NCBI RefSeq assembly: GCF_001908105.1
Contig: NZ_MKGQ01000025.1
Coordinates: 1-44,710, forward strand
Length of the DNA: 44,710 nucleotides
Direction: 5' to 3'
From: Xenorhabdus eapokensis
GTDB taxonomy: Bacteria > Pseudomonadota > Gammaproteobacteria > Enterobacterales > Enterobacteriaceae
Shown: positions 2,255-32,802 of the stretch, one piece after another
Layout of the letters: each line of letters starts with the position of its first letter
Numbering within the stretch: position 1 is the stretch's first letter
The notes under the pieces: generated by a model
What the model saw: only the letters and a program-made list of their open reading frames with translations
What the model was told of the DNA's origin: nothing
Databases searched by the model: none
Position numbers and translations under genes: made by a program

Positions 2255-3070
2255 TTAATCTTTGCCGTATCTGGAGCGGTTCGGTGTACAGCCAAAGCGT
2301 CGGCGATAGCTTTGGGTGAAATAGGATTGGCTGGAAAAACCCGATTCCAATGAAATATCGGCGATATTCATTTCGCTATTTAGTAATAATTGATGTGCAT
2401 AAAGAATACGCTGTTCACTGATCCAGGCTTTGGGTGAAGTGCCATAGACACTGCTAAAAAGCTCCTTAAAAGAAGTTAATCCCATACCGAATTCACGGGC
2501 GAAGTCATTCAATTTCCATTCTTTGAGGTAGTGAGCCTCCATAAATGTTTGCAGGCGTTCTACCTGACGGTTACTTAATTTTCGTAGAATAGACATTAAC
2601 AATGTTCCCTGTTTACCCAAGGAAAGCAGCAATAGTAACTCCTCAACCCTTAGTTGAACCAACGCAGGCGGGGAATCATGCGCCAGTAAGTTCGCCAGCC
2701 CGCGAATGCTTTCTGTTAACAAGGGAAACTGGTCAAATGGAATCAACCGATAAGCAGGAAATGCCTGTCGCTCTAACTGACTTAATAATGATCCGAAACG
2801 CTGTAAAAAACTACGTAAAAACTCCATGTGTAAGGGTAACCATAATAGCTGACAATTTTCCGTATTGGTTTTAGCTGCATAACTTCCGGGGTGGGTAAAA
2901 AGGATCTGATTCGATTTAATGTGATGAGTGTTTATACAATCTTTCCACACCATTTCGCCATCGAGTAAAATATATAGCCCTCTTTGTTTATGTTCCAGAA
3001 TATTGAAATCCGGCATAGTTAATGGGATCGTGCAAATATTCTTTTGATTTAAGCCCGTCGTCCTTTTCAT
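2255..3070 (-). CDS. exsA: AraC/XylS-family activator, ExsA/LcrF-like
   Basis: A 271-residue regulator with an N-terminal ligand/partner domain (about residues 1-160) and a C-terminal AraC double helix-turn-helix (about 170-268). The C-terminal half is strikingly like the type III secretion activator ExsA of Pseudomonas as I recall it: HYLKEWKLNDFAREFGMG, TSFKELFSSVYG, RILYAHQLLLNSEMNIADIS and FSSQSYFTQSYRRRFGCTP all match nearly residue for residue. The N-terminal part also follows ExsA (LLWLPL, SFLQRFGSLLS, RVEELLLLL). ExsA normally activates an injectisome regulon and is held by the anti-activator ExsD. No secretion gene, exsC, exsD or exsE lies in this window, so here it stands alone. The long AT-rich gap upstream may hold its promoter. 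Orthology is inferred and the target genes are unknown. Confidence 0.85.
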   Translation of the reverse strand: MKRTTGLNQKNICTIPLTMPDFNILEHKQRGLYILLDGEMVWKDCINTHHIKSNQILFTHPGSYAAKTNTENCQLLWLPLHMEFLRSFLQRFGSLLSQLERQAFPAYRLIPFDQFPLLTESIRGLANLLAHDSPPALVQLRVEELLLLLSLGKQGTLLMSILRKLSNRQVERLQTFMEAHYLKEWKLNDFAREFGMGLTSFKELFSSVYGTSPKAWISEQRILYAHQLLLNSEMNIADISLESGFSSQSYFTQSYRRRFGCTPNRSRYGKD

Positions 3071-11653: not shown

Positions 11654-12254
11654 TCGTCTCCTACCGATGGGCTCGACTCAGCTAGAACTTGCGGCGGCCA
11701 AAGCCTGCGCTGAATTACAGAAGGTCAAGGTTCCGTTACGCGAGCTGTGGAACCCAGATACTTGTCCGGCATCACTGCTGCCTTATCTGGCCTGGGCGTG
11801 GTCAGTCGATCGCTGGGACGAACGTTGGTCTGAGAGCACCAAAAGGGAAGTGATCAAAAGCTCGCTATTCCTGCATAAACATAAAGGAACAATTGGTGCG
11901 ATTCGGCGAGTTGTCGAACCATTGGGTTATCTCATCCGTGTAAAAGAGTGGTGGCAAACCAACGATACCCCAGGCACTTTCCGGCTGGATATCGGTGTAC
12001 TGGAAAACGGCATCACCCATGAAATGTTCGAGGAGCTGGAAAACCTGATCTTTGATGCCAAGCCAGTAAGCCGACATTTGATTGGGTTGGACATCAATTT
12101 GGATACACGTGGCGAATATCACTACTCGGCGGCGACTTACAGTGGTGACGAACTGACGGTTTACCCTTATTTCCCGGAACAAGTAACAATCTCCGGCTCA
12201 GAAGTTGTGGGCGCGGGCATACATATTATTGATGACATGAGGATTAGATCATGA
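11646..12254 (+). CDS. I: Baseplate/tail protein I (P2 gpI)
   Basis: A 202-residue phage tail protein I, somewhat longer than P2 gpI (176). It connects the baseplate wedge to the tail fibre. Visible family blocks are LWNPDTCPASLLPYLAWAWSVD, the SLFLHKHKGTIGAIRR segment and DAKPVSRHL near the end. The stop overlaps the H start by 4 bases (ATGA), so fibre production is coupled to wedge production. Confidence 0.92.
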   Translation: MSDRLLPMGSTQLELAAAKACAELQKVKVPLRELWNPDTCPASLLPYLAWAWSVDRWDERWSESTKREVIKSSLFLHKHKGTIGAIRRVVEPLGYLIRVKEWWQTNDTPGTFRLDIGVLENGITHEMFEELENLIFDAKPVSRHLIGLDINLDTRGEYHYSAATYSGDELTVYPYFPEQVTISGSEVVGAGIHIIDDMRIRS

Positions 12255-14272
12255 GTACCAAATATTTTGCGCTGCTGACGCAGTTAGGCGCAGATAAATT
12301 AGCAAATGCTGCGGCATTGGGTACTAAAATTGAAATTACCCATATGGCCGTTGGTGATGGTGGTGGCAAGTTGCCGACACCGGACACTAAACAAGCCAAA
12401 TTGATTAATGAAAAGCGTCGTGCAGCGATTAACACGCTGAGCATTGATCCGAAAAACACCAACCAAATCATTGCGGAACAGGTTATTCCTGAAAACGAAG
12501 GTGGCTGGTGGATCCGTGAAATCGGCCTGTATGACAAAGACGGTGTTTTGATCGCAGTGGGTAACTGTGCGGAAACCTACAAACCCCAATTGCAGGAAGG
12601 TTCCGGCCGTACCCAGACAATCCGTATGATCCTGATTGTCAGCAGCGCTAACGCGGTGACACTGAAAGTTGACCCGTCAGTAGTTTTGGCGACGCGTGAG
12701 TATGTTGATGATTCTATTAAGAAACATGCCAATAGCCGTAACCATCCTGACGCAACGCTGAAAGAGAAGGGATTTGTGATCCTGAGCAGCGCGGTGGACA
12801 GCAATAGCGAAATTCATGCGGCAACACCGAAGGCGGTGAAGACGGCATATGATTTGGCTAAGGCGGCGGATAATAATGCCAATGGCCGCGTTCCAGCAGG
12901 GCGTAAGGTAAATGGTAAGGCGCTGTCGGCGGATATTGCTCTGAATGCAGGTGATGTTGGTGCGTATAACACAGCCCAAACTGACGCTAAAGTGAATGAG
13001 GTTAGATCCTTAGCTAACACTGCGAACCAAAATGCGGCTAATGCAAATAATAATGCCAACACTCGTTTGGAGAAAAATAAGAACGGTGCGGATATTCCAA
13101 ACAAAGATGAGTTTGTGAAAAACCTCGGTTTGGTGGGAACCGTAGATCTCGCAAAAAATGCCGTGCCGAATTCACGGAAAATTAATGGCAAGGTGTTAAC
13201 GGGGGATGTAACCATAAATTCAGAGGATGTTGGCGCATTTTCCAGAGGAGCTACCACTTCTGTTCAAGGAGAAAATGGCGTGCCGTGGGATGCAGCATCC
13301 GGTTCTTATATTGCCCAAAGAAATGGAGACTCCCAGCTTGTCATACATTTTAATGTGGATGCTGGTAGTACCCCAGCTTTACAATTAAAGACTATGTATC
13401 GGAACAATGGCATTGCTTATCGTTCAGCCAGAGATAGATATGGATTTGAAGAGCCGTGGACAGAGTTTTATACCACTAAAAATAGACCAACAGCTGTTGA
13501 TGTTGATGCTGTTTCTTCATTACATGGAGGAACATTTCATGAGCATGTCCGTTTTGACAAAAACATTATTGTAGGCAACAACGATAATTCAGTCATGAAA
13601 TTTAGTTCTAATGGATCAGCAGTATCACCAGTCCATATTCAAACATGGGGTAATGCTATACAAGGTGGGAATAGATACACGGTATTGGAAGCTGGGGACA
13701 ATCAAGGATGGTTGTGGTATAGCCAAAGGATAGACAATGGAGAGGTATCTTTTGCAGTAAATGGAAAAATGTTGCCTAACAATTATAATAATTTCGACAA
13801 TCGCTACCTACAGCATAATCAACAAAATATCCCTGTAGGTGTACCATTACCTTGGCCCCATTCAAACCCACCTGATGGTTATTTTGAATGTAATGGACAA
13901 AAATTTGATAAATATAAATATCCAAAATTAGCAATGGCGTATCCCTCCGGTATTATACCAGATCTACGTGGTGAATTTATTCGTGGGCTAGATAACGGGC
14001 GCGGAGTGGATCCAAATAGGAAAATATTAACACATCAAGAGGGAACAATAATATCGGGATTTGATGATAACGATACAGGCGATATAAGCTTTCTTGGCGA
14101 ACCAAGCTGTGCATTTGGTGATCCAATGACAAATATACAATGGGAAAATACTAAAGATAAAAGATGGATATATTGGAATAGCCAGGGTATGGCGGAACGC
14201 TATAACTGGTGGGCTTATGTATCGGCCCGTCCCCGTAACGTAGCATTTTTATATATAGTGAGAGCAGCATAA
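12251..14272 (+). CDS. H: Tail fibre protein H with switchable C-terminus
   Basis: The receptor-binding tail fibre, 673 residues, like P2 gpH in size. Residues 1-160 are the conserved attachment domain (KYFALLTQLGADKLANA, WWIREIGLYD). Residues 165-205 contain a phage fibre repeat (HPDATLKEKGFVILS). A low-complexity Asn/Ala stretch follows (ANQNAANANNNANT). Residues 288-306 (KNLGLVGTVDLAKNAVP) are encoded by one copy of a 55-bp inverted repeat with a Hin-type crossover core. Everything after that is the variable half, ending in a tail-collar domain (PPDGYFECNGQKF, PDLRGEFIRG). The base composition changes after about 13250 to more AT-rich, marking the variable C-terminus as acquired. The stop TAATG overlaps the tfa start. 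Confidence 0.93.
   Translation: MSTKYFALLTQLGADKLANAAALGTKIEITHMAVGDGGGKLPTPDTKQAKLINEKRRAAINTLSIDPKNTNQIIAEQVIPENEGGWWIREIGLYDKDGVLIAVGNCAETYKPQLQEGSGRTQTIRMILIVSSANAVTLKVDPSVVLATREYVDDSIKKHANSRNHPDATLKEKGFVILSSAVDSNSEIHAATPKAVKTAYDLAKAADNNANGRVPAGRKVNGKALSADIALNAGDVGAYNTAQTDAKVNEVRSLANTANQNAANANNNANTRLEKNKNGADIPNKDEFVKNLGLVGTVDLAKNAVPNSRKINGKVLTGDVTINSEDVGAFSRGATTSVQGENGVPWDAASGSYIAQRNGDSQLVIHFNVDAGSTPALQLKTMYRNNGIAYRSARDRYGFEEPWTEFYTTKNRPTAVDVDAVSSLHGGTFHEHVRFDKNIIVGNNDNSVMKFSSNGSAVSPVHIQTWGNAIQGGNRYTVLEAGDNQGWLWYSQRIDNGEVSFAVNGKMLPNNYNNFDNRYLQHNQQNIPVGVPLPWPHSNPPDGYFECNGQKFDKYKYPKLAMAYPSGIIPDLRGEFIRGLDNGRGVDPNRKILTHQEGTIISGFDDNDTGDISFLGEPSCAFGDPMTNIQWENTKDKRWIYWNSQGMAERYNWWAYVSARPRNVAFLYIVRAA
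13113..13167 (+). repeat. 55-bp inverted repeat, left copy, with Hin/Gin-like crossover core
   Basis: Identical, in opposite orientation, to 15915-15969. The first 26 bases include AAACCTCGGTTT (13120-13131), the palindromic core of gix/hix/cix-type sites with the dinucleotide TC at 13125-13126, flanked by TTGTGAA, close to the consensus half-site. Both copies are read in the same protein frame (KNLGLVGTVDLAKNAVP), so recombination here keeps H open. Confidence 0.88.
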
Positions 14273-14889
14273 TGAAATATACAACAGATATTAAAACACC
14301 AAAATTTAATGAAAATGGCTTTGCAACTTCTAATAGTTGGGTGATGGTTTATCGGGCTAATACCGAGACAAGAGAATATATTTGTGCAGATATGGAACGC
14401 ACTGTTATTGGTGTTAGTCTGTCTGCCGGGGCTTATTTAGATGCACCTGAATTACCCGATTCTTTTGATATTGCTGTTTGTCGTAGTGAGGATGAAAAGT
14501 CATGGGTTCATATACCAGATTATCGTGGAAAAATTGCTTATCATATTAAAACCCGAGAATCTCGAAAAATACAATCAATTGGTGAATTATCTTCTGAATT
14601 GACTTTATTAGAACCTAAGACTTCATTTGATAAATGGGATGGGAAACAATGGGTAACAGATTTTGATGAACAAAAAAAATATGATTTACAACAAGTAGAA
14701 AGCCAAAAACAATCTCTGTTACATGAAGCTGAACGAAAAATTATTCAATTAGAGCGTAAAGTTCGGCTTGAGATGGCTTCAAAAGAGGAAGTTTCACTAT
14801 TACGTGAATGGGAAATCTATAGTGTTAAGTTAGTTGAACTTGATATTTCAGACATCAAAAAAAATGATTGGCCCCAAAAACCAGAATAA
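14272..14889 (+). CDS. Tail fibre assembly protein (Tfa, P2 gpG-like)
   Basis: A 205-residue chaperone that folds and trimerises the C-terminus of the tail fibre. The C-terminal part has the usual caudal Tfa features: WDGKQWVTD, then a long charged helix (LLHEAERKIIQLERKV), then WEIYSVKLVELDIS and WPQKPE. It starts at the last base of the H stop codon. Like the variable half of H it is more AT-rich than the baseplate genes, so fibre tip and chaperone have probably been exchanged together. It lies inside the invertible segment. Confidence 0.9.
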   Translation: MKYTTDIKTPKFNENGFATSNSWVMVYRANTETREYICADMERTVIGVSLSAGAYLDAPELPDSFDIAVCRSEDEKSWVHIPDYRGKIAYHIKTRESRKIQSIGELSSELTLLEPKTSFDKWDGKQWVTDFDEQKKYDLQQVESQKQSLLHEAERKIIQLERKVRLEMASKEEVSLLREWEIYSVKLVELDISDIKKNDWPQKPE

Positions 14890-14893
14890 TAAT

Positions 14894-14912
14894 CAGGGGC
14901 ATTATGCCCCTG
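14894..14912. terminator. Hairpin between tfa and the inverted fibre cassette
   Basis: The stem CAGGGGCA/TGCCCCTG (14894-14901 with 14905-14912) has a 3-base loop. AT-rich sequence follows on both sides, so it could stop transcription in either direction. That suits a segment that can invert. Confidence 0.65.
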
Positions 14913-14974
14913 TAATTATTTATATTTTACAATTTTTATAAAACAGATATTAATCTATTATATCAGTTAATGGA

Positions 14975-15991
14975 TTATTCCTCAGAATTTTCTATTTTTT
15001 TATGCAATTTATTTTGTTTTAAATTCCAAACGGAATCTTTAGGCATCTGTACACGAACGTCCAAGCGACAACCGTCAGGAATATCGCAAGGCTCACCCTC
15101 TGCATAATAAATCAACTTACCTTCAAACATGGTTTTTATTCGCTTATTTTGGAATTGTTCAGGTAGATGTAAATGTTGCCTATGGAAAGTTTCAATTATA
15201 ATACTACCATCTTTTTGCACTTTGTCAGAAATGTAAATTAACTCTAATCCATTATTATTCTTTGGTGATGAAATACCACCATGAATTCCCCAAGCACCAT
15301 CAGAATTATATCCCATAATTCCAGTAACTTTGTATTGGCCAATATCTATTCTTGAAACACTTGCCCCCTCTGATTCGTCATTGGTGATAAATGTACCTGT
15401 AGGATATACTTGAATAATTGGTGAAGATTGTCTTAAATTTCCGTTAACATCAGAAATAACCCCGCTGATATTTTCGGAAGTCATCAAATAACGTTTCCAT
15501 TCAGTAGCAGCAACCAGATCTTTGCTCTGATCATTTTTTATAATTTTTCTAACATACGTATTTAAACTATGCCCAGCTGTAAATCGTTGAACAAACCAAG
15601 TGTCGTAGCTATCACTGGGCAGAACTTCTAACATTCCAAACTCTTGAATTGGATAGTTCCTCTCAGGAGTAGAGTTTACAGACCACCTTTGACAGTACCA
15701 TCCTTGTTCCAAAACATCTTGAAGATTTATGTCTTCTAACTCTTTTGGATTTTTTTCTAAAAAGTTTTTGTTTATCCAACCAGTTTCAACTTTTGTATTA
15801 AGTAATTTTTGAAACTCAGTTTTAGTAACTCGTTCATCGATCAAAGATGTTACAACCTGCTGGCTCATGAGCAGCTTATCCGAATTCCCTGAATATTGGG
15901 TAATAGAGGATTTTGGCACGGCATTTTTTGCGAGATCTACGGTTCCCACCAAACCGAGGTTTTTCACAATACATGGATCCTTACGATCCAA
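14975..15991 (-). CDS. Silent alternative tail-fibre C-terminal cassette (H')
   Basis: The frame encodes the distal half of a different tail fibre on the strand opposite to H. After KNLGLVGTVDLAKNAVP, shared with H, it continues with unrelated sequence: VLEQGWYCQRW, a segment SPIIQVYPTGTFITND, GAWGIHGGISSPKNNNG and the fibre-end motif PDGCRLDVRVQMPKDSVWN. No fibre N-terminal domain precedes it. The TTG at 15991 has no convincing binding site, so alone it is silent. Inversion between the 55-bp repeats would join it in frame after H residue 291, giving a fibre of about 618 residues. It resembles the S'/Sc' type reserve ends of Mu, P1 and e14. No tfa follows it. Confidence 0.82.
   Translation of the reverse strand: MDRKDPCIVKNLGLVGTVDLAKNAVPKSSITQYSGNSDKLLMSQQVVTSLIDERVTKTEFQKLLNTKVETGWINKNFLEKNPKELEDINLQDVLEQGWYCQRWSVNSTPERNYPIQEFGMLEVLPSDSYDTWFVQRFTAGHSLNTYVRKIIKNDQSKDLVAATEWKRYLMTSENISGVISDVNGNLRQSSPIIQVYPTGTFITNDESEGASVSRIDIGQYKVTGIMGYNSDGAWGIHGGISSPKNNNGLELIYISDKVQKDGSIIIETFHRQHLHLPEQFQNKRIKTMFEGKLIYYAEGEPCDIPDGCRLDVRVQMPKDSVWNLKQNKLHKKIENSEE
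15915..15969 (-). repeat. 55-bp inverted repeat, right copy
   Basis: Reverse complement of 13113-13167 without a mismatch. The crossover-like core lies at 15951-15962. The two copies bracket 2.75 kb holding the H 3' half, tfa and the H' cassette. Confidence 0.88.
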
Positions 15992-16145
15992 GTCAGGATC
16001 CCACTCCTTAAACCCTGAAAACCAAAACCCAATGACAAAAACAAGCCATTTTAAGATATCAAAAAATAACCAAAAACCAGAATCATACTGAATAATACCG
16101 AAAAGGATAAATTTTAACCAAAATAAAGCCCGATAAATAATCAGT
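15970..16145 (-). pseudogene. Start-less hydrophobic reading frame fused to the H' cassette
   Basis: Reading the minus strand upstream of H', the same frame stays open from just after a TAA at about 16146 and encodes a strongly hydrophobic, aromatic-rich stretch: FWLFFDILKWLVFVIGFWF, then SGFKEWDPDLDRKDP, running straight into the cassette. There is no ATG or GTG start. It looks like the broken end of a small membrane protein gene trapped at the outer edge of the invertible segment. I do not recognise the family. Confidence 0.4.
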
Positions 16146-16271
16146 TATGGCTTATTATTTAACCTAAGTGGATTCGCTCCAACCAAACTACCTAATTTCC
16201 CCAACCTAACCAAAAATCAATTAAAAACAAATTCAACAAATTGATTATAAAGGAAAATATAAAACCACATT

Positions 16272-16289
16272 TGTACCACCCCCCATACA
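16272..16289 (+). promoter_or_regulatory. Candidate Ogr-type late promoter site upstream of FI
   Basis: TTTGT-N12-ACA (TGT 16272-16274, ACA 16287-16289), centre 16280. A TATAT -10 candidate near 16325-16331 puts the start about 55 bases from the centre, the classical Ogr geometry. It would drive FI through D. This is the best of the three sites in the window. Confidence 0.6.
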
Positions 16290-16361
16290 CCGCCAATCGA
16301 ATGATTTCCCCCGTCTAATCCGCCAATATATCAGCACACCTTAACAGGAGAGAACGCTAAT

Positions 16362-17534
16362 ATGGCACAAGATTATCATCACGGAGTCCGTGTACAGGAA
16401 ATTAACGAAGGTACACGTACCATCACTACCGTTAGCACCGCTATCGTTGGTATGGTCTGTACTGCACCTGACGCAGACGAAAAAACATTTCCATTAGACA
16501 CACCGGTATTACTGACTGACGTTATGAGCGCCATTGGTAAAGCTGGTGAAAAAGGTACTTTGGCCGCATCACTGAAAGCAATCGCAGCACAGGCACAACC
16601 TGTCACTGTCGTGGTTCGTGTGGCTGAGGGAGAAACTGAAGAAAAAACCAGTAGCAACATCATCGGTGGGGTTACGCCAGAAGGCAAGAAAACCGGTATG
16701 CAGGCACTGCTCGCTGCACAAAGCCAGCTCGGTGTTAAACCACGTATTCTGGGTGTTCCGGGTCTGGATTCAAAAGCTGTGGCTACTGAATTGGCCTCTA
16801 TTGCCGAGAAGCTGAAAGCAATGGCGTATGTCAGTGCTTATGGCTGTAAAAAAATCGAAGAAGTCATCAAATATCGTGAAAACTTCAAGCATCGTGAGCT
16901 GATGCTGATTTGGCCTGACTTCCTGAGCTGGGATACCGTCACCAACAGCGAAGCGACTGCTTTCGCAACTGCTTATGCACTGGGCTTGCGTGCCAAAATC
17001 GACGAAGAAACCGGCTGGCACAAAACCCTGTCCAATGTGGGTGTTAACGGCGTAACGGGTCTGTCTGCCGATGTCTTCTGGGATCTACAAGCGACTGGAA
17101 CCGACGCTGATCTGCTGAACAAAGCAAGCATCACAACTCTGATCCGTAAAAACGGCTTCCGTTTCTGGGGTTCACGCACTTGTTCTGATGATCCACTGTT
17201 CCAGTTCGAAAGCTACACCCGTACCGCTCAGGTTCTGGCTGACACTATGGCTGAAGCACACATGTGGGCTATCGATAAACCGCTGACTCCATCACTGGTG
17301 CGCGACATTATTGAAGGTATCAATGCCAAGTTCCGCGAGCTGAAAGCCGGTGGTTACATCATTGATGGTCGTTGTTGGTATGACGACAAAATCAACGATA
17401 AAGACACCTTGAAAGCCGGCAAACTGACCATCGATTATGACTATACACCTGTACCGCCACTGGAAAACATGATGTTACGCCAGCGCATTACAGATAGTTA
17501 CCTGATGGATTTCGCGAAAAGTATCAATAAATAA
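16362..17534 (+). CDS. FI: Contractile tail sheath protein FI
   Basis: A 390-residue sheath subunit, close to P2 FI (396). It forms the contractile outer tube that drives the spike through the target envelope. Markers are the N-terminal [26 protein letters not shown], the [18 protein letters not shown] turn and the C-terminal [31 protein letters not shown] precedes the ATG. Codon use is noticeably more even and GC-rich than in the fibre tip, as expected for a highly expressed structural gene. Confidence 0.95.
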
Positions 17535-18488: not shown

Positions 18489-18622
18489 CCGTTGATGAAT
18501 TGGTGGCAGATATCGCCACCGTTTTTCACTGGACTCCGGCAGACACAGACGCAATGTCACTGCCGGAATTATTGGACTGGCGACATCGGGCCATTTTAAG
18601 AAGTGGTGCAGAAAATGAGTAA
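18171..18622 (+). CDS. Tail assembly chaperone fusion E-E' made by -1 frameshift
   Basis: After slippage at the heptamer T-TTT-TTG (18443-18449), the -1 frame reads VAEVGQVRFPERLTVDELVADIATVFHW, then MSLPELLDWRHRAILRSGAENE and stops at 18620-18622. This matches P2 E' (DIAxxFHWxP and the SLxELLxWRxRA block). A small hairpin (AGTCGG 18457-18462 with CCGATT 18469-18474) lies 7 bases after the slip site, the usual distance for a frameshift stimulator. The product is about 149 residues. The E' end overlaps the T start. Confidence 0.85.
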
Positions 18623-21600
18623 TATACAGTCACAGCTTAACAAGGTACTGAGTACTGTTGGTAAGCTGACCAGTTCCTTTAAATCTTTTCAACAGCATCA
18701 GAAAAAACTGGTAGGTTCAGTTGATAAAATTTATAACCAGTTTAAAAAACTTAATAAGACTGTTGAAGGATTAAAACCCATTGTAGGTTATGCGCAGGAA
18801 ACTGCGCGTATGCGTGCCGATCTTAAGGCCTATAATCAAACCATTAAACAATCTTTCTCTGCGCGGCAGAATCCCTCAAAAATAATGCAGGTAGGTGCTG
18901 CCAGCCAATCAGATAATATTGTTCAAATAAACCAGAATGTCAGACAGGAAAACTCATCCAGTAAAAAGAATGAATTTAATCTTGGTGTGACGGGTAATAT
19001 GACTAACAATTTTAAATTGTTAGATAAATTGGTTATTAATATTAATCCTCAGATAACAATTTTATTTAGTATGCTGAATAAAATTAATGGGGTTTTGAAT
19101 TTAACTGCTGGTTTTGTAAAAGTCACATTCCAGACTTTAATTAATCATACACAAGTATTTGGCAATGTTGGTATAAAAACATTTGATTCTTTAAGAGTTA
19201 AATTAAATATATTTGCCTTATTAGGAATTCAAGCTTTTATTGAATTGAGAGCCAGCCTGAACTTTTTTGTGCAATTGGGAGTTCGAGCTTTTATTGAGCT
19301 AAGAGCCAGCCTGAACTTTTTTGTGCAATTGGGAATTAGGGCTTTTGTTGAATTGAGAGCCAGCCTGAACTTCTTTGTGCAACTGGGAGTTCGAGCTTTT
19401 GTAGCGCTAAGAGCCAGCCTGAACTTTTTTGTACAGTTGGGAATTAGGGCTTTTGTTGAGCTAAGAGCCAGCCTGAACTTCTTTGTGCAATTGGGAGTTA
19501 GGGCTTTTGTTGAGCTAAGAGCCAGCCTGAACTTCTTTGTGCAATTGGGAGTTCGAGCTTTTGTTGAATTGAGAGCCAGCCTGAACTTTTTTGTGCAGTT
19601 GGGCGTTCGGGCTTTTGTAGCGCTAAGAGCCAGTCTGAACTTCTTTGTGCAGTTGGGCGTACGGGCTTTTGTTGAATTGAGAGCCAGCCTGAACTTCTTT
19701 GTGCAGTTGGGCGTTCGGGCTTTTGTTGAGCTAAGAGCCAGTCTGAATATTTTTGCTCAGGTTGGGATCCAAGTTTTTATTCAGCTAAAAGTCAGTTTTG
19801 GTGCATTTGCTGAGCTGGGTCGTCGAGCTTTGGAAACATTAAAATCCAGCCTGAATGCATTTGCACAGTTGGGTATTCAAGCTTTGGATGCATTAAAAGC
19901 CAGTCTGAATTTCTTTGCCCAAATAGGGGTTCAGGCGCTGGATAAATTAAAATCCAACCTGGATGCATTTGTGCAATTAGGGCTTAATGCTTTTGAAGAA
20001 TTAAAATCCAGTCTGAGTCTCTTTGCCCAAATAGGGGTTCAGGCACTGGACAAATTAAAATCCACCTTGGATGCATTTGTGCAATTGGGGCTTAATGCTT
20101 TTGAAGAGTTAAAAGCCAGCCTGAATTTCTTTGCCCAAATAGGGGTTCAGGCACTGGATAAATTAAAATCCACTTTGGATGCATTTGTGCAATTGGGTGT
20201 TCAGGCTCTGAATAAATTAACGGCACCTTTGGATATATTTTCCCAATTGGGAATTCAGGCGTTAGATAAATTAAAATCCACCTTGGATGCGTTCGTGCAA
20301 TTAGGGCTTAATGCTTTTGAAGAGTTAAAAGCCAGCCTGAATTTTTTTGCCCAAATAGGGGTTCAGGCACTGGATAAATTAAAATCCACGCTGGATGCAT
20401 TTGTACAATTGGGTATTCAGGCCCTGAATAAATTAACGGCGCCTTTGGATATATTTGCCCAATTGGGAACTCAGGCATTGGATAAATTAAAGTCCACGCT
20501 GGATGCATTTGTGCAATTGGGTGTTCAGGCCCTGAATAAATTAACATCTCCCCTAGATGTATTTGCTAAATTGGGTATGCAGGCTTTCGAAGAGTTAAAA
20601 TCCAGTCTGAATTTCTTTGCACAGTTGGGTGTTCAGGCACTGGACAAATTAAAATCGAGTCTGGATATATTTACTCAGATTGGAGTTCAGGGACTGGAAG
20701 AATTAAGAGCCAATCTGAATAGATTTGCGCAGGTGGGTATTCAGGCCATGGAGAATTTAAGAGATGGCTTGAAGGCATTTGCACAATTCGGAACCGAGGC
20801 TTTGGAAGCGCTAAGAGCTGCCATGGACTTTTTTGGTAAAACCGGAAACAAGGTTTTTGGCTCACTTAATGATGGAGCTGATTTGCTGTCTAATAAAGGA
20901 GGTAAAGATACTTTTGGAAGACAACGAAAGGGCTTGGGGGCATTAGGGAATATTGGTCAAAAAGTTTTTGGTGTTTTGGGTAATGGCATAAATATTCTGG
21001 CAAGTGTTGGTGTAAAAGGCCTGTCTTTTTTAAGTAGTGCTTTTAGTGTATTAGGTAAAGCAATACTGTTTATTGGCCGAGCTATGATGGCGAATCCTAT
21101 TCTTGCCATTATTGGTGTTATCGCAATGGCTGCTATTTATATTTGGCAGAATTGGGAAACATTAGGACCTAAATTTACTGCGCTGTGGGAAAACATCAAA
21201 AATGTTTGTAGCAATGCATGGCAGGGAATTAAAGACCGAGTCAGTGCTGCTTGGGAAGGTATTAAAAGTTATTTCATGAATGGGGGATTAATCGGCCTTA
21301 TTTACCAAAATTGGGACACGATTAAACAAAGCACCTCAGAAGCTTGGGAATCCGTTAAAGCTAAAATAGGTGAAGTTTGGGGATCCGTTAAACAGAATAC
21401 CTTAGAAATTTGGGAGAGCGTAAAAAAATCAATTTCAGATAAATGGAATGAAATTGTTGCTGATGTTCAGGCTATTCCTGAAAAATTAAAAGCGGCTGGC
21501 TCAGCAATGATCGATAGTTTGCTAATTGGTATTCAGGAAAAATGGGAAAGCCTGAAAAATAAATTCGCCTCTATTACTGATTGGTTTAAATCGTGGTGGT

Positions 21601-22103
21601 CTGGTGATGATAACAAGGAAGTTACCGTAAAAACATCCCAGGAAATTACCAAGAGTGACACATCTCAGCAGGCAAAACAGATTACTCAACATGATAAAGG
21701 AGGATTTATTCCTGCTGGAAAACAAGGCCTTGTAGGAGAATATGGCCCTGAAATTATCAATGGCCCAGCTAATGTTACCAGCCGGAAAAATACCGCGAAA
21801 TTCGCTGCTTTGGGTCTTGCCGTTAGCTCAATGTCACTGCCGATTGCGGCGCAGGATGCACCATTACACGCGCAGAGTTTACCTGCCCACGCTTATGAGG
21901 AAGTGCAGGCGAAACGAGAGCGGAGCCAGCCACAGCAATACGGTGGCGCAGCACCGCAATATAACATCTATGTCTATGGCGCCCAGGGACAATCCGCGCA
22001 GGATATTGCCCGTGTGGTCAGGCAGGAATTGGAACAAAGAGAACGTATGCACCAGGCGCGTATGCGTAGCTCACTTTCAGACAGAGGAGAAGATTTCTCA
22101 TGA
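18615..22103 (+). CDS. T: Tape measure protein T with 30 tandem 18-residue repeats
   Basis: This protein sets tail length and is 1162 residues from ATG 18615, against about 815 in P2. The first 180 residues are polar and coiled-coil-like. From 19203 to 20822 come 30 uninterrupted 18-residue (54-bp) units of the pattern LNxFxQLGxxAxxxLxxS, with degenerate units on both sides. Eighteen residues are five helical turns, so the array should form one long amphipathic helix. Units 3-11 are almost identical. Units 15-26 show a second-order 36-residue period. After the array come hydrophobic segments (ILFIGRAMMANPILAIIGVIAMAAIYIW) and a Trp-rich helical tail domain (NWETLGPKFTALWENIK). The start overlaps the E' stop, and the stop overlaps U. 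Confidence 0.92.
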   Translation: MSNIQSQLNKVLSTVGKLTSSFKSFQQHQKKLVGSVDKIYNQFKKLNKTVEGLKPIVGYAQETARMRADLKAYNQTIKQSFSARQNPSKIMQVGAASQSDNIVQINQNVRQENSSSKKNEFNLGVTGNMTNNFKLLDKLVININPQITILFSMLNKINGVLNLTAGFVKVTFQTLINHTQVFGNVGIKTFDSLRVKLNIFALLGIQAFIELRASLNFFVQLGVRAFIELRASLNFFVQLGIRAFVELRASLNFFVQLGVRAFVALRASLNFFVQLGIRAFVELRASLNFFVQLGVRAFVELRASLNFFVQLGVRAFVELRASLNFFVQLGVRAFVALRASLNFFVQLGVRAFVELRASLNFFVQLGVRAFVELRASLNIFAQVGIQVFIQLKVSFGAFAELGRRALETLKSSLNAFAQLGIQALDALKASLNFFAQIGVQALDKLKSNLDAFVQLGLNAFEELKSSLSLFAQIGVQALDKLKSTLDAFVQLGLNAFEELKASLNFFAQIGVQALDKLKSTLDAFVQLGVQALNKLTAPLDIFSQLGIQALDKLKSTLDAFVQLGLNAFEELKASLNFFAQIGVQALDKLKSTLDAFVQLGIQALNKLTAPLDIFAQLGTQALDKLKSTLDAFVQLGVQALNKLTSPLDVFAKLGMQAFEELKSSLNFFAQLGVQALDKLKSSLDIFTQIGVQGLEELRANLNRFAQVGIQAMENLRDGLKAFAQFGTEALEALRAAMDFFGKTGNKVFGSLNDGADLLSNKGGKDTFGRQRKGLGALGNIGQKVFGVLGNGINILASVGVKGLSFLSSAFSVLGKAILFIGRAMMANPILAIIGVIAMAAIYIWQNWETLGPKFTALWENIKNVCSNAWQGIKDRVSAAWEGIKSYFMNGGLIGLIYQNWDTIKQSTSEAWESVKAKIGEVWGSVKQNTLEIWESVKKSISDKWNEIVADVQAIPEKLKAAGSAMIDSLLIGIQEKWESLKNKFASITDWFKSWWSGDDNKEVTVKTSQEITKSDTSQQAKQITQHDKGGFIPAGKQGLVGEYGPEIINGPANVTSRKNTAKFAALGLAVSSMSLPIAAQDAPLHAQSLPAHAYEEVQAKRERSQPQQYGGAAPQYNIYVYGAQGQSAQDIARVVRQELEQRERMHQARMRSSLSDRGEDFS
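19203..20822 (+). repeat. 54-bp tandem repeat array (30 units)
   Basis: Exact 54-bp periodicity without a single indel across 1620 bases. Units 3-11 (19257-19742) differ by only a few bases and encode LNFFVQLG(V/I)RAF(V/I)(E/A)LRAS. Units 15-26 alternate two types (FFAQIGVQALDKLKST and DAFVQLGLNAFEELKAS), giving a 108-bp higher-order period. The sequence shows expansion and homogenisation by unequal recombination or slippage. Confidence 0.92.
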
Positions 22104-29694: not shown

Positions 29695-30693
29695 ATGGAA
29701 CGTTTTGACATAGAAGAAGTGTCTAACAAAATTCTACATGAATTATTGCAGTATCGACGTCGTTTTCCTGAGTCTGAACATACAGTTCAATATGAAGAAA
29801 AAAAGGTTTCTGAGGTTCAATTGCCACGTATTCGTGCATTTGTGGAACAGGGGAAACCTATCGAATGTATTTTACCTGCATTTCCGACAAAATCCCCCAA
29901 TCCCAGGAAAGTATTGGGTAAAATACCGGATATGGCAGAAAAATTATCACTGATTTTTCTAAATTCTCTTTGCCAGCGAATTCAGCTTTATTATCCACCT
30001 GGGGCAAATATTGTTATTTGTTCTGATGGGCATGTTTTTAGTGATCTTATTCTTGTCGATGATGACACAATTACCCATTATCAATTAGAAATTGAAAAGT
30101 TGTTGCATGAACTGGGTGCGACTCATCTTTCAGTTTTTAATCTTGGTAACGTTGAATCACTCACCCAATATACCAATGATTATGATCAACTGCGGGAATT
30201 ATTGGTCAGCCGTTATGCCTCTTCAATTGAGGAGATCAAGGAAGAACTCAAAAAAACCGAAGAAGGTGTTCAATTATATCGGGCGATTACTCGTTTTCTT
30301 TATGAAGATAGCTTATTGCCCGAATATACAGGTTCGAAAAATGCGTTGCAAAAAGATGCCCGCCAGCGCTCGGCTGGGGTTATCCAACGTAGTTGGGCGT
30401 GGGGTAATTTGCTGGCAGAGCAGTTCCCATTGGCGATCCGCCTTTCTATTCACCCGCAGCCCGTGGACAGTATCAAAATTGGTATTCATATGATGCCAAC
30501 TAGGGATGATTGGCTGACGCCGTGGCACGGTGTGGCGGCCAACATTAACGGTCAGTTCGTATTGATGAAAAGTGATGAAGTGAAAAAAAGGAATGGAAAG
30601 CTGATCGAAATTCGGGGTGTTCCAAGCCATTACTTGATTGAAATACCATCAGAGAAAAATCCGCAAACAGAATTCCAGACGGTGACAGCATAA
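29695..30693 (+). CDS. isnA: Isonitrile synthase IsnA (PvcA/DIT1 family), rhabduscin biosynthesis
   Basis: A 332-residue isocyanide synthase that converts the amino group of tyrosine to an isonitrile, using ribulose-5-phosphate as the carbon source. Family markers include LPAFPTKSPNPRKVLGKIPDMAEKLSL, then ICSDGHVFSDLILVDDD and SAGVIQRSWAWGNLLAEQFP. It is followed by isnB and a glycosyltransferase, the composition of the rhabduscin cluster of Xenorhabdus nematophila. Rhabduscin is shown on the cell surface and blocks insect phenoloxidase. GGAATGAATT precedes the ATG. Confidence 0.93.
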   Translation: MERFDIEEVSNKILHELLQYRRRFPESEHTVQYEEKKVSEVQLPRIRAFVEQGKPIECILPAFPTKSPNPRKVLGKIPDMAEKLSLIFLNSLCQRIQLYYPPGANIVICSDGHVFSDLILVDDDTITHYQLEIEKLLHELGATHLSVFNLGNVESLTQYTNDYDQLRELLVSRYASSIEEIKEELKKTEEGVQLYRAITRFLYEDSLLPEYTGSKNALQKDARQRSAGVIQRSWAWGNLLAEQFPLAIRLSIHPQPVDSIKIGIHMMPTRDDWLTPWHGVAANINGQFVLMKSDEVKKRNGKLIEIRGVPSHYLIEIPSEKNPQTEFQTVTA

Positions 30694-30735
30694 ACAGAAT
30701 AACCACGTGGTATACGTATCTTGGAGAGAAAAATC

Positions 30736-31608
30736 ATGAATACCTATGAACTTGATTGTCATATTGAGGTGATGAAACCTTTTGGTGTATTTATTACTCC
30801 CAATTACCCTAATCAGGATATTACTACACTGCCTGTTGATGCTTTGCGTGAATTAGCTCGTACTCACCTGCTGGTTGTATTGCGAGGCTTTCAATCCGGT
30901 TTTACCGATAAAGAAAAATTAGCGGAATATTCTGGTCGTTGGGGTGAAATCATGATGTGGCCATTTGGTGCTGTATTGGATGTTATGGAGCACCCAGAAC
31001 CGTCTGATCATGTTATGGACAGTGGTCATTTGCCGTTGCATTGGGATGGAATGTATAGAGAAACCATCCCTGAATTTCAGCTATTTCACTGTGTTTCTGC
31101 CCCTGAAGCGGCTCAAGGGGGGCGCACTACGTTTGTCAACACGGAACAATTAATTATCGATGCCAGTGATGAAGAGCGTAATACATGGAAAAATACCACC
31201 ATTACCTACCGAACAAGCCGAGTGACACATTATGGCGGGGAAGTGACTTCACCATTGGTTTGTTCTCACCCAGACGGCAAAAAATGGGTGATGCGTTACA
31301 ACGAACCGATGGGAAAAGAAGATGTGAAATATGCTGATCATCACGCTTTGAAGATAGAAGGTATGTCGCAGGAAGAGCAACAAGTTCTTGAGGAAACACT
31401 GTATAACCGATTGTATGATCCGCGTTATTTCTACGCTCATCAATGGCAGTCTGGTGATATTGCGATTTGCGATAATTTCACTCTATTACATGGCCGTGAA
31501 GCTTTTATTTCCCGTTCTCCTCGCCATATTCAACGGGTGCATATCCACGGCGTGCCTGTGTGTAACAATCACAGTTTCCGTACTATTTCTGTTTCCAGTG
31601 CCGATTGA
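30736..31608 (+). CDS. isnB: Fe(II)/2-oxoglutarate oxygenase IsnB, rhabduscin biosynthesis
   Basis: A 290-residue TauD/PvcB-type non-haem iron oxygenase that oxidatively decarboxylates the tyrosine isonitrile to the vinyl isonitrile. The iron-binding triad begins with H102-W-D104 in LHWDGMY; the distal His is in LLHGREAF, and the 2-oxoglutarate Arg probably lies in [11 protein letters not shown]. Start: ATG 30736 with GGAGAG 8 bases upstream. The TTG at 30721 would overlap the binding site and is rejected. It lies 42 bases after isnA. Confidence 0.92.
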
Positions 31609-31638
31609 GTAGAAGTTGCCTTGAAGGAGGCTTGATTA

Positions 31639-32802
31639 ATGTCTCGTATTGTTTTGGCGGCTGTTGCAACTCCTGTCCATGTTTTTCCCATGTTCACTAT
31701 TGCGGAACATTTAATAGGGCAGGGACATGATGTCACAATATTTAGTGGTTCTTTGTTTCAACAGCAAGCGGAAACATTGGGGGCTAATTTTGTTCCCTTT
31801 GATAAGCAAGTGGATATTGATTATCGCTGTCTGGAAAAATATTTTCCTGAACGGGCAGAACTTCCGCCGGGGAATGCCCAGATGGCACTGCCGTTATTGC
31901 AGAAACCGGCTGAAAAACGTATCCCTGTCATTGCTATTGGTGTTACTCCACTGGCGTGGTCAACAAAGGATGCCATATTCTGGGGGGCTAGAATTCCACC
32001 TGAATTATTGCCTGCTGATTTAACCCGTGATCAATTGATAGATAAGGAAACGCACCAGTTAATTGAACAGGTTAGGGAAGCATTCAATCGGTCGCTTGCT
32101 GCCGTGGGTTATCCCCCACTGACAGGGGATCACAATGATGTTTTGATGAGTCGGGTTGATCGTTTCTTGCAACTGGCAACTCAATCATTTGAATTTATTC
32201 GTGATGATTTACCTGAGACGGTGGATTTTATCGGCTCGCTGCCGGTAAAAGTTGAAGATGATAAAGCACAAATCAGTTGGCCAGATGAAAGCCTGCCGTT
32301 GATCCTGGTGACTCAGGGAACACTGGCAAATATTGATTTTAACCAATTGATATTACCCACATTGCGGGGGCTGGCAACTTTGCCGGTTCGGGTATTGGCA
32401 ATTACAGGCGGTCGTTCTATCAATATCCTGGGTGAAGATCTTCCAGAGAATGCCAGGGTAGTAGAGTATCTTAATTTTGAAGACTGGCTGCCCAGAGCAT
32501 CAATTTTTATTACCAATGGCGGTTACGGCTCTCTGAATTCAGCGATTCGTCACGGTGTACCTTTGGTGGTCGCGGGAACAGGTGATGGTAAATTGGAAGC
32601 TGTCGCCCGCGTTATCTGGTCACGTTGTGGTATCAGCTTGCATACTGATACACCAAATGAGCAGCAACTATATCAGGCAGTGACAAGGATATTATCTTCC
32701 CCGATATGGCGTCAGCAGTCACAGATCATTAAGGCAGATTATGATGCCCATAATGCTTTGGCATCAATAACGCGCCACATTAATGAATTAATTACTCAAT
32801 AG
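31639..32802 (+). CDS. UDP-glycosyltransferase of the rhabduscin cluster, probably shortened
   Basis: A GT1-family glycosyltransferase expected to add an amino-deoxy sugar to the aglycone made by IsnA and IsnB. The N-terminal half starts RIVLAAVATPVHVFPMFTIAEHL. The C-terminal UDP-sugar-binding half has ILVTQGTLAN, then YLNFEDWLPRASIFITNGGYGSLNSAIRHGVPLVVAGTGDGK. At 387 residues it is shorter than the usual 420-440. At about residue 82-84, NAQMA runs directly into LPLLQKPA, so about 40 residues of the acceptor-side domain seem to be missing in frame. Activity is therefore uncertain. GAAGGAGG precedes the ATG. Confidence 0.85.
   Translation: MSRIVLAAVATPVHVFPMFTIAEHLIGQGHDVTIFSGSLFQQQAETLGANFVPFDKQVDIDYRCLEKYFPERAELPPGNAQMALPLLQKPAEKRIPVIAIGVTPLAWSTKDAIFWGARIPPELLPADLTRDQLIDKETHQLIEQVREAFNRSLAAVGYPPLTGDHNDVLMSRVDRFLQLATQSFEFIRDDLPETVDFIGSLPVKVEDDKAQISWPDESLPLILVTQGTLANIDFNQLILPTLRGLATLPVRVLAITGGRSINILGEDLPENARVVEYLNFEDWLPRASIFITNGGYGSLNSAIRHGVPLVVAGTGDGKLEAVARVIWSRCGISLHTDTPNEQQLYQAVTRILSSPIWRQQSQIIKADYDAHNALASITRHINELITQ

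What the first reader, a model, noticed from the sequence alone, without database searches (positions are those of the whole stretch)
13113..15969. Invertible tail-fibre switch with a Hin/Gin-type crossover site
Seen: a 55-bp perfect inverted repeat (13113-13167 and 15915-15969) lies inside H and inside an opposite-strand fibre C-terminal cassette. It carries AAACC-TC-GGTTT, the core of gix/hix/cix sites, in the same protein frame in both copies. Inversion of 2.8 kb would replace H after residue 291 with the 327-residue H' end, keep the frame and move tfa to the other strand. Known: Mu Gin, P1 Cin and e14 Pin switch fibres this way. Inference: this tailocin can change its target range by DNA inversion, with an invertase supplied from outside the window.
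Basis: partly seen in the sequence, partly recalled or inferred. Interest (0 to 1): 0.85.

Follow-up and report, generated by a model that had tools for sequence, protein, structure and literature searches.

The report
Tailocin fibre switch lacking its invertase
A Xenorhabdus phage-tail weapon carries two alternative tail-fibre ends on a DNA segment that appears able to flip; it keeps the crossover sites and helper sequence of a phage-type switch, although the flipping enzyme's gene seems to be gone from the locus and is probably supplied from a fixed place elsewhere in the chromosome.

Summary
In detail: a perfect 55-bp inverted repeat carries AAACC-TC-GGTTT in the same coding frame in fibre gene H and in a start-less opposite-strand fibre-end cassette (H'). 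The window is a Xenorhabdus xenorhabdicin (P2-like tailocin) locus. The inverted site pair recurs across the genus; X. hominickii shows the flipped configuration; X. bovienii contigs put exchange at the core, twice exactly at the central TC. Inversion here was reported in 2026 (PMC13280938), naming no site in its main text and finding no invertase in any xenorhabdicin locus. I add two candidate parts. (1) A Fis-like pair spaced 48 bp, 108 and 156 bp beyond the partner site, in 20 of 20 tailocin loci and 0 of 60 control flanks; four of eight related loci with a local invertase have it at the same place, inside that gene. The gap thus looks like a dead invertase gene that kept its enhancer. (2) An orphan Gin/Hin-type invertase at a fixed place beside cheZ and/or the flhB-side symporter in 27 of 30 Xenorhabdus genomes (median dN/dS 0.03), the best candidate for acting in trans. 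Enzyme activity, Fis binding and both orientations in this strain are untested; its genome is not held.

The parts
12251..14272 (+). H, main tail-fibre gene (673 aa); residues 1-290 are the constant part, the rest is the end in use now
   Evidence: Phage_tail_fib 1-149, Phage_fiber_2, gp37_C, Collar
13113..13167 (+). arm 1 of the 55-bp perfect inverted repeat
13113..13138 (+). 26-bp crossover site 1, core 13120-13131, central TC 13125-13126
   Evidence: exchange mapped to the TC in relatives
13120..15962 (.). invertible segment, 2843 bp core to core
14272..14889 (+). tfa, fibre assembly gene, inside the segment
   Evidence: Caudo_TAP
14975..15962 (-). H' cassette: silent alternative fibre end (328 residues from the site; nominal ORF runs to 15991)
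   Evidence: Phage_tail_C_2; no in-frame ATG
15915..15969 (-). arm 2 of the 55-bp perfect inverted repeat
15944..15969 (-). 26-bp crossover site 2, core 15951-15962
15970..16361 (.). non-coding gap read as the decayed 5' part of a lost invertase gene (inference)
   Evidence: 44-48% identity at register to three invertase 5' ends, control maxima 37-41%; relative L214 has an invertase gene at this place
16057..16071 (.). Fis-like box 1 of the proposed enhancer (one mismatch to the recalled consensus)
16105..16119 (.). Fis-like box 2 of the proposed enhancer, 48 bp from box 1, centre to centre (no mismatch)
16362..17534 (+). tail sheath gene, constant right flank
   Evidence: Phage_sheath_1

Best explanation
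A tail-fibre inversion switch of a xenorhabdicin (P2-like R-type tailocin). A Gin/Hin-type serine invertase would pair the two inverted 26-bp sites, helped by Fis on an enhancer about 108 and 156 bp beyond the partner site, cut at the central TC and rejoin the 2.84-kb segment the other way round, so that the constant first 290 residues of H are followed by the H' end instead of the H end. The locus has lost its own invertase gene but kept that gene's enhancer. The enzyme is most probably the orphan invertase encoded beside cheZ and the flhB-side symporter, acting in trans. Shown by sequence: sites, frame, recurring pair, alternative configurations in relatives, junctions at the core and TC, the geometry of the Fis-like boxes, the orphan gene and its conservation. 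Inferred: that the orphan is present in this strain and acts on these sites, that Fis binds, that the switch works here, and that it changes the killing range.
For: Same frame and silent cassette. Exact inverted core pair in 15 of 58 genome-contig loci and 14 of 80 viral-contig loci (some are the same DNA; many loci end near the site). 51 of 56 NLGL motifs use AAC CTC GGT where codon use predicts 0.9%. Core in 30 genomes: 117 matches against 32 for the reversed control pattern. Flipped configuration in X. hominickii L009. L102/L105: 413 bp at 100% in reverse, starting at the core. L105/L106: two junctions overlapping by exactly TC. Fis-like pair 48 bp apart at the outer flank of the partner site in 20 of 20 loci, 0 of 60 control flanks. 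Orphan invertase beside cheZ and/or the symporter in 27 of 30 genomes, median dN/dS 0.027 over 325 pairs of 26 genes, closest to Gin in the PDB (4m6f, E 2e-80); 22 of those 27 genomes have no second full match of 70% identity or more. Prophages with the same core site have an invertase gene (70-76%) next to it.
Against: Only one orientation is known for this strain and its genome is not held. No invertase in the window. G014 (X. szentirmaii) has tailocin sites but no close invertase (best 50%); G015 and G022 have the orphan but no exact core beside the H found (G015's contig ends there); G019 has one site and no exact partner. Nearest genome G011 also holds 72% invertases next to prophage sites. 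In 4 of 8 loci with a local invertase the Fis-like pair is not at +113/+161. Box 1 misses the Fis consensus by one base in most loci. No Fis binding or activity data.
Confidence: 0.78

Rival explanations
1. The segment is flipped by general homologous recombination (RecA) between the repeats; the core is only a conserved coding motif.
For: The window repeat is 55 bp; in L003 and L244 it is 336 and 668 bp.
Against: The exact repeat is 20 bp or shorter in 10 of 20 tailocin loci. Two L105 junctions share only TC with quasi-sites. Synonymous codons at the core are fixed.
Confidence: 0.07
2. Inversion is carried out by an invertase of another prophage in the same cell, not by the orphan.
For: Genomes G004, G005, G009, G011, G031 and G034 hold further invertases of 70% identity or more, several beside the same core. 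G011 is the nearest genome to the window.
Against: 22 of 27 orphan-bearing genomes have no second full match of 70% or more, yet most of these keep the tailocin site pair. The orphan is fixed in place and under purifying selection. Both enzymes could act; this rival overlaps the best explanation.
Confidence: 0.2
3. A frozen relic: inversions happened in the past, when the locus had its own invertase, and no longer happen in this lineage.
For: No invertase in any tailocin locus examined; one orientation only is known for this strain.
Against: Sites, frames and Fis-like boxes are still conserved. X. bovienii-like contigs 98.9-99.2% alike over 9 kb upstream differ in arrangement. PMC13280938 reports sister strains above 99.98% ANI in opposite orientation (passage).
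Confidence: 0.1

Closest known systems
Inversions in xenorhabdicin loci of X. bovienii (PMC13280938, 2026; abstract, section 15 and passages seen)
   Same: Same tailocin locus; fibre C-terminal cassettes inverted between near-identical strains; no invertase in the locus
   Different: Main text names no crossover site (terms searched: 0 hits), enhancer or particular enzyme; it suggests multi-site recombinases encoded elsewhere. Supplement not read
P2-like prophage L214 of X. kozodoii and L215 of genome G031
   Same: Same order H, site, cassette, inverted site, with the same core
   Different: Has an invertase gene (75% to the orphan) where the window has a non-coding gap; in L215 the sheath homologue lies elsewhere and is only 53% alike
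Carotovoricin fibre switch with invertase Ein (PMC13195805, passages seen)
   Same: Tailocin fibre locus inverted behind a constant N-terminal part
   Different: Invertase gene lies in the tailocin cluster, in 172 of 365 carotovoricins by that paper
Mu Gin, P1 Cin, e14 Pin, Salmonella Hin (recalled; e14 pinE also in passages of PMC4272514)
   Same: Inverted 26-bp sites with a 2-bp centre; fibre ends swapped in Mu, P1 and e14; Fis enhancer with boxes 48 bp apart (recalled)
   Different: There the invertase gene adjoins or lies in the segment; here it does not
Photorhabdus fibre loci L179 and L180
   Same: Invertase 84% to the orphan, with the Fis-like pair at +114/+162
   Different: Invertase is local and sites have a TT centre; the Photorhabdus tailocin-type core beside H is decayed

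Membership tests
Gin/Hin-type DNA inversion system | Two inverted sites of about 26 bp with a shared 2-bp centre | tested here: met
   exchange at TC in relatives
Gin/Hin-type DNA inversion system | Fis-bound enhancer, boxes 48 bp apart, in cis | tested here: inconclusive
   Sequence geometry met in 20 of 20 loci, 0 of 60 control flanks; binding and need not testable here; consensus recalled
Gin/Hin-type DNA inversion system | Serine invertase gene beside the sites | tested here: not met
   None in the window or in any of the xenorhabdicin loci; orphan elsewhere in 27 of 30 genomes
Gin/Hin-type DNA inversion system | Inversion occurs in cells | tested here: inconclusive
   Flipped configurations between strains and species, not within one culture
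Serine invertase (the orphan) | Resolvase domain plus HTH_7, Gin-like over the full length | tested here: met
   PF00239, PF02796; 4m6f and 3uj3, E about 1e-80
Xenorhabdicin (P2-like R-type tailocin) | P2-like spike, baseplate, fibre, sheath, tube and hub genes | tested here: met
Xenorhabdicin (P2-like R-type tailocin) | No capsid or terminase genes | tested here: met
   None of the 30 window ORFs scanned matched such a family; 77 ORFs of 80 aa or more were listed, not all scanned
Xenorhabdicin (P2-like R-type tailocin) | Kills related bacteria | not testable with these tools
   No activity data for this strain

The most novel reading that the evidence does not exclude
Xenorhabdus has split a phage fibre switch in two: the tailocin keeps the crossover sites and a Fis enhancer left over from a dead local invertase gene, while one domesticated invertase, fixed in the flagellar-chemotaxis region of the core genome, flips tailocin fibres in trans and so brings the choice of target under host control.
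Probability: 0.65. Interest if true: 0.8.

Novelty: new variant of a known kind. Interest (0 to 1): 0.72.

Why it matters
A 2026 study showed that xenorhabdicin fibre ends are inverted between near-identical strains and left open how. The sites, a proposed enhancer and one conserved candidate enzyme make that question testable with one gene deletion. If right, it is a case where a host kept a phage recombination enhancer in cis while the recombinase sits at a fixed chromosomal place, with consequences for which competitors an insect-pathogenic symbiont can kill.

Tried and rejected
Invertase in the window: none found by tblastn with the orphan. Flagellar phase switch as the orphan's job: no exact AAACCNNGGTTT in 10 of 10 orphan surroundings of 17-18 kb (L169-L178), one-mismatch matches in 5 of them. 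SOS control of the orphan: no CTG-N10-CAG in about 380 bp upstream in 26 of 26. BLASTN of the window gap against L214 found nothing beyond the core except a 21-bp match at E 0.006; the comparison at fixed register was needed and is weaker evidence. The Fis scan was begun with the 48-bp spacing in mind (recalled) and the positions were found by it; in Markov shuffles of three gaps about 13% held some such pair anywhere, so the case rests on the fixed position and the control flanks. Protein search with the L009 fibre end (best 120 of 1409 listed) showed no protein joining the constant H part to the window's own H' allele; the nearest of that build was P0045 of Xenorhabdus sp. PR6a (51% over 222 aa of H'). 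The L009 match to H' covers residues 173-325 of the cassette, not its middle. A site shared with Photorhabdus tailocins was dropped: beside H the core is two mismatches off in 3 of 5 loci and worse or absent in 2. Structure prediction and fold search were not used. Older xenorhabdicin and carotovoricin papers (2011, 2012, 2017, 2001) are not held, so an earlier naming of the site or enzyme cannot be excluded. Library searches for it in print.
Full report
What was checked. The 55-bp perfect inverted repeat is real and is the only inverted repeat of 25 bp or more that the repeat search found in the window. The core AAACCTCGGTTT occurs twice, once per arm. Both copies lie in the same reading frame (VKNLGL), one inside H, one inside an opposite-strand ORF without an in-frame ATG. 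H carries Phage_tail_fib, Phage_fiber_2, gp37_C and Collar; the opposite cassette ends in Phage_tail_C_2; tfa is Caudo_TAP. The neighbours are P2-like spike, baseplate, sheath, tube and hub genes. The DNA is Xenorhabdus: a 2,473-bp stretch outside the tail genes is 96% identical to G011, the genome of the X. thuongxuanensis locus L014, and 93% to G032. No genome is held for the window itself.

Relatives. One scan of genome contigs gave 58 loci and one of viral contigs kept the best 80 of 423. An exact inverted pair of the core is held by 15 of the 58 and 14 of the 80; some viral contigs are the same DNA as genome loci, many loci stop near the site, and many are not Xenorhabdus. In 30 Xenorhabdus genomes the exact core occurs 0 to 14 times, 2 or 3 times in 16 of them; the total is 117 against 32 for the pattern read backwards. 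An exact pair in the tailocin locus was read in 18 of the 27 orphan-bearing genomes, and G031 makes 19. In 30 sequences (the window and 29 loci) 51 of 56 NLGL motifs use AAC CTC GGT, where codon use predicts 0.9%; two exceptions are one-mismatch forms of the site (L014, L022) and three are motifs elsewhere. Relatedness inflates this count.

Alternative arrangements. In X. hominickii (L009) the H-type end and tfa lie on the opposite strand (58.5% and 74% protein identity) and an H'-like end follows the constant part of H (68.6% over residues 173-325 of the H' cassette). Among X. bovienii-like contigs (L105 is 99.1% identical to strain T228 over 8.3 kb), L102 carries behind its constant H part 413 bp that are 100% identical to a cassette of L105 in reverse, beginning at the core; upstream only 10 of 30 bases agree. 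L105 against L106 shows two more junctions, with quasi-sites; in each the match to one parent ends and the match to the other begins at the same TC. These are draft contigs and the whole rearrangement is complex, but a two-base overlap at the expected place of cleavage, twice, is hard to obtain from assembly error or homologous recombination. Of 22 pairs (from 36 distinct sequences) with at least 93% identity over 200 bp upstream, 20 fall below 75% downstream, first mismatch 7 to 27 bp after the core begins, and 2 lie between; many pairs share a member. The exact repeat around the core is 13 to 668 bp, and 20 bp or shorter in 10 of 20 tailocin loci.

The enzyme. No invertase was found in the window or in the xenorhabdicin loci, as the 2026 paper also states of its loci (passage). 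PF00239 is present in 27 of 27 Xenorhabdus and Photorhabdus genomes. A Gin-like invertase (4m6f, E 2e-80) at 87% identity or more is present in 28 of 30 Xenorhabdus genomes (in G004 as a part at a contig end). In 27 of them it lies beside cheZ and/or the Na/Ala symporter, with flhB and flhA beyond where the stretch reached them. G034 has its copies elsewhere and none at cheZ; G014 and G035 have none at cheZ. Twenty-six orthologues give a median dN/dS of 0.027 over 325 pairs, with a median dS of 1.12, so near saturation. Five of the 27 genomes (G004, G005, G009, G011, G031) also hold another invertase of 70% or more. Agreement between orphan and sites is good, not perfect: the H region of G034 shows no core even at two mismatches in the 3.7 kb read, but G014 has tailocin sites without a close invertase, and G015, G019 and G022 have the orphan without an exact pair in what is held.

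The enhancer. Related prophages have an invertase gene beginning within 100 bp of the partner site (L212, L214, L215); in L214 it lies just before the sheath gene. In the window that place is a 392-bp gap with no gene found. Scanning with a degenerate Fis consensus (recalled), a pair spaced exactly 48 bp has its centres at +112 to +115 and +160 to +163 from the core start in 25 of 25 tailocin flanks, two mismatches or fewer in all; L013 and L016, whose flank is otherwise strongly diverged, match without mismatch. In 4 of 8 loci with a local invertase (L179, L180, L214, L215) the pair is at the same place, within the first codons of the invertase gene; in the other 4 it is not. On 20 tailocin loci the outer flank of the partner site has the pair in 20 of 20 (19 of 20 at one mismatch), and three other flanks have it in 0 of 20 each. 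In 19 of these loci, read whole, there are 25 such pairs at the stricter setting, 18 of them these. Conservation is 0.956 and 0.90 in the boxes against 0.68 to 0.82 around them, in 18 sequences with L013 and L016 left out. The window gap is 44-48% identical at register to three invertase 5' ends, with control maxima of 37-41%. I read the gap as a decayed invertase gene of which the enhancer was kept. That fits an enzyme acting in trans, since the enhancer must lie in cis (recalled from Gin and Hin).

How it compares with what is known. Fibre inversion in tailocins is known for carotovoricin (PMC13195805, passages), and inversions in xenorhabdicin loci were shown in 2026 (PMC13280938: abstract, section 15 and passages). 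The main text of the latter holds none of the terms inverted repeat, crossover, hix, gix or recombination site, says the loci have no invertase and suggests multi-site recombinases from elsewhere. A 2010 paper lists cheZ, and also fis, as places where variable regions sit in Photorhabdus and Xenorhabdus (PMC3091717, passages). Older xenorhabdicin papers are not held. What is added here is the site, the proposed enhancer and the orphan enzyme as candidate parts; all of it rests on sequence.

Noticed in passing
window 19204-20853: The 1166-residue ORF at the tape-measure position (18603-22103) holds a long array of 54-bp (18-residue) repeats, 26 registered copies of the reference; it may bear on tail length.
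   Followed up: no
window 29695-32802: PvcA-like isonitrile synthase, TauD-type oxygenase and a glycosyltransferase in a row, like a rhabduscin-type cluster (name recalled).
   Followed up: no
window 2255-3070: ExsA-like AraC-family regulator on the minus strand next to the tailocin cluster.
   Followed up: no
L017 / L217 (X. szentirmaii): Two H N-termini in one tailocin locus, each with its own site, plus an inverted partner site, in a genome without the orphan invertase.
   Followed up: partly
G031, contig C1: Five inverted core pairs about 1.97 kb apart in one genome, one of them beside a local invertase (L215) and one beside the 94% H.
   Followed up: partly
L179 and L180 (Photorhabdus): Local invertase with TT-centre sites, one exact or near-exact site beside the gene and further ones up to 9.6 kb away in L180.
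   Followed up: partly
L211 and L213 (G034): Two further invertases of 87% identity next to single or paired sites, the pair in L213 with a TT centre.
   Followed up: no
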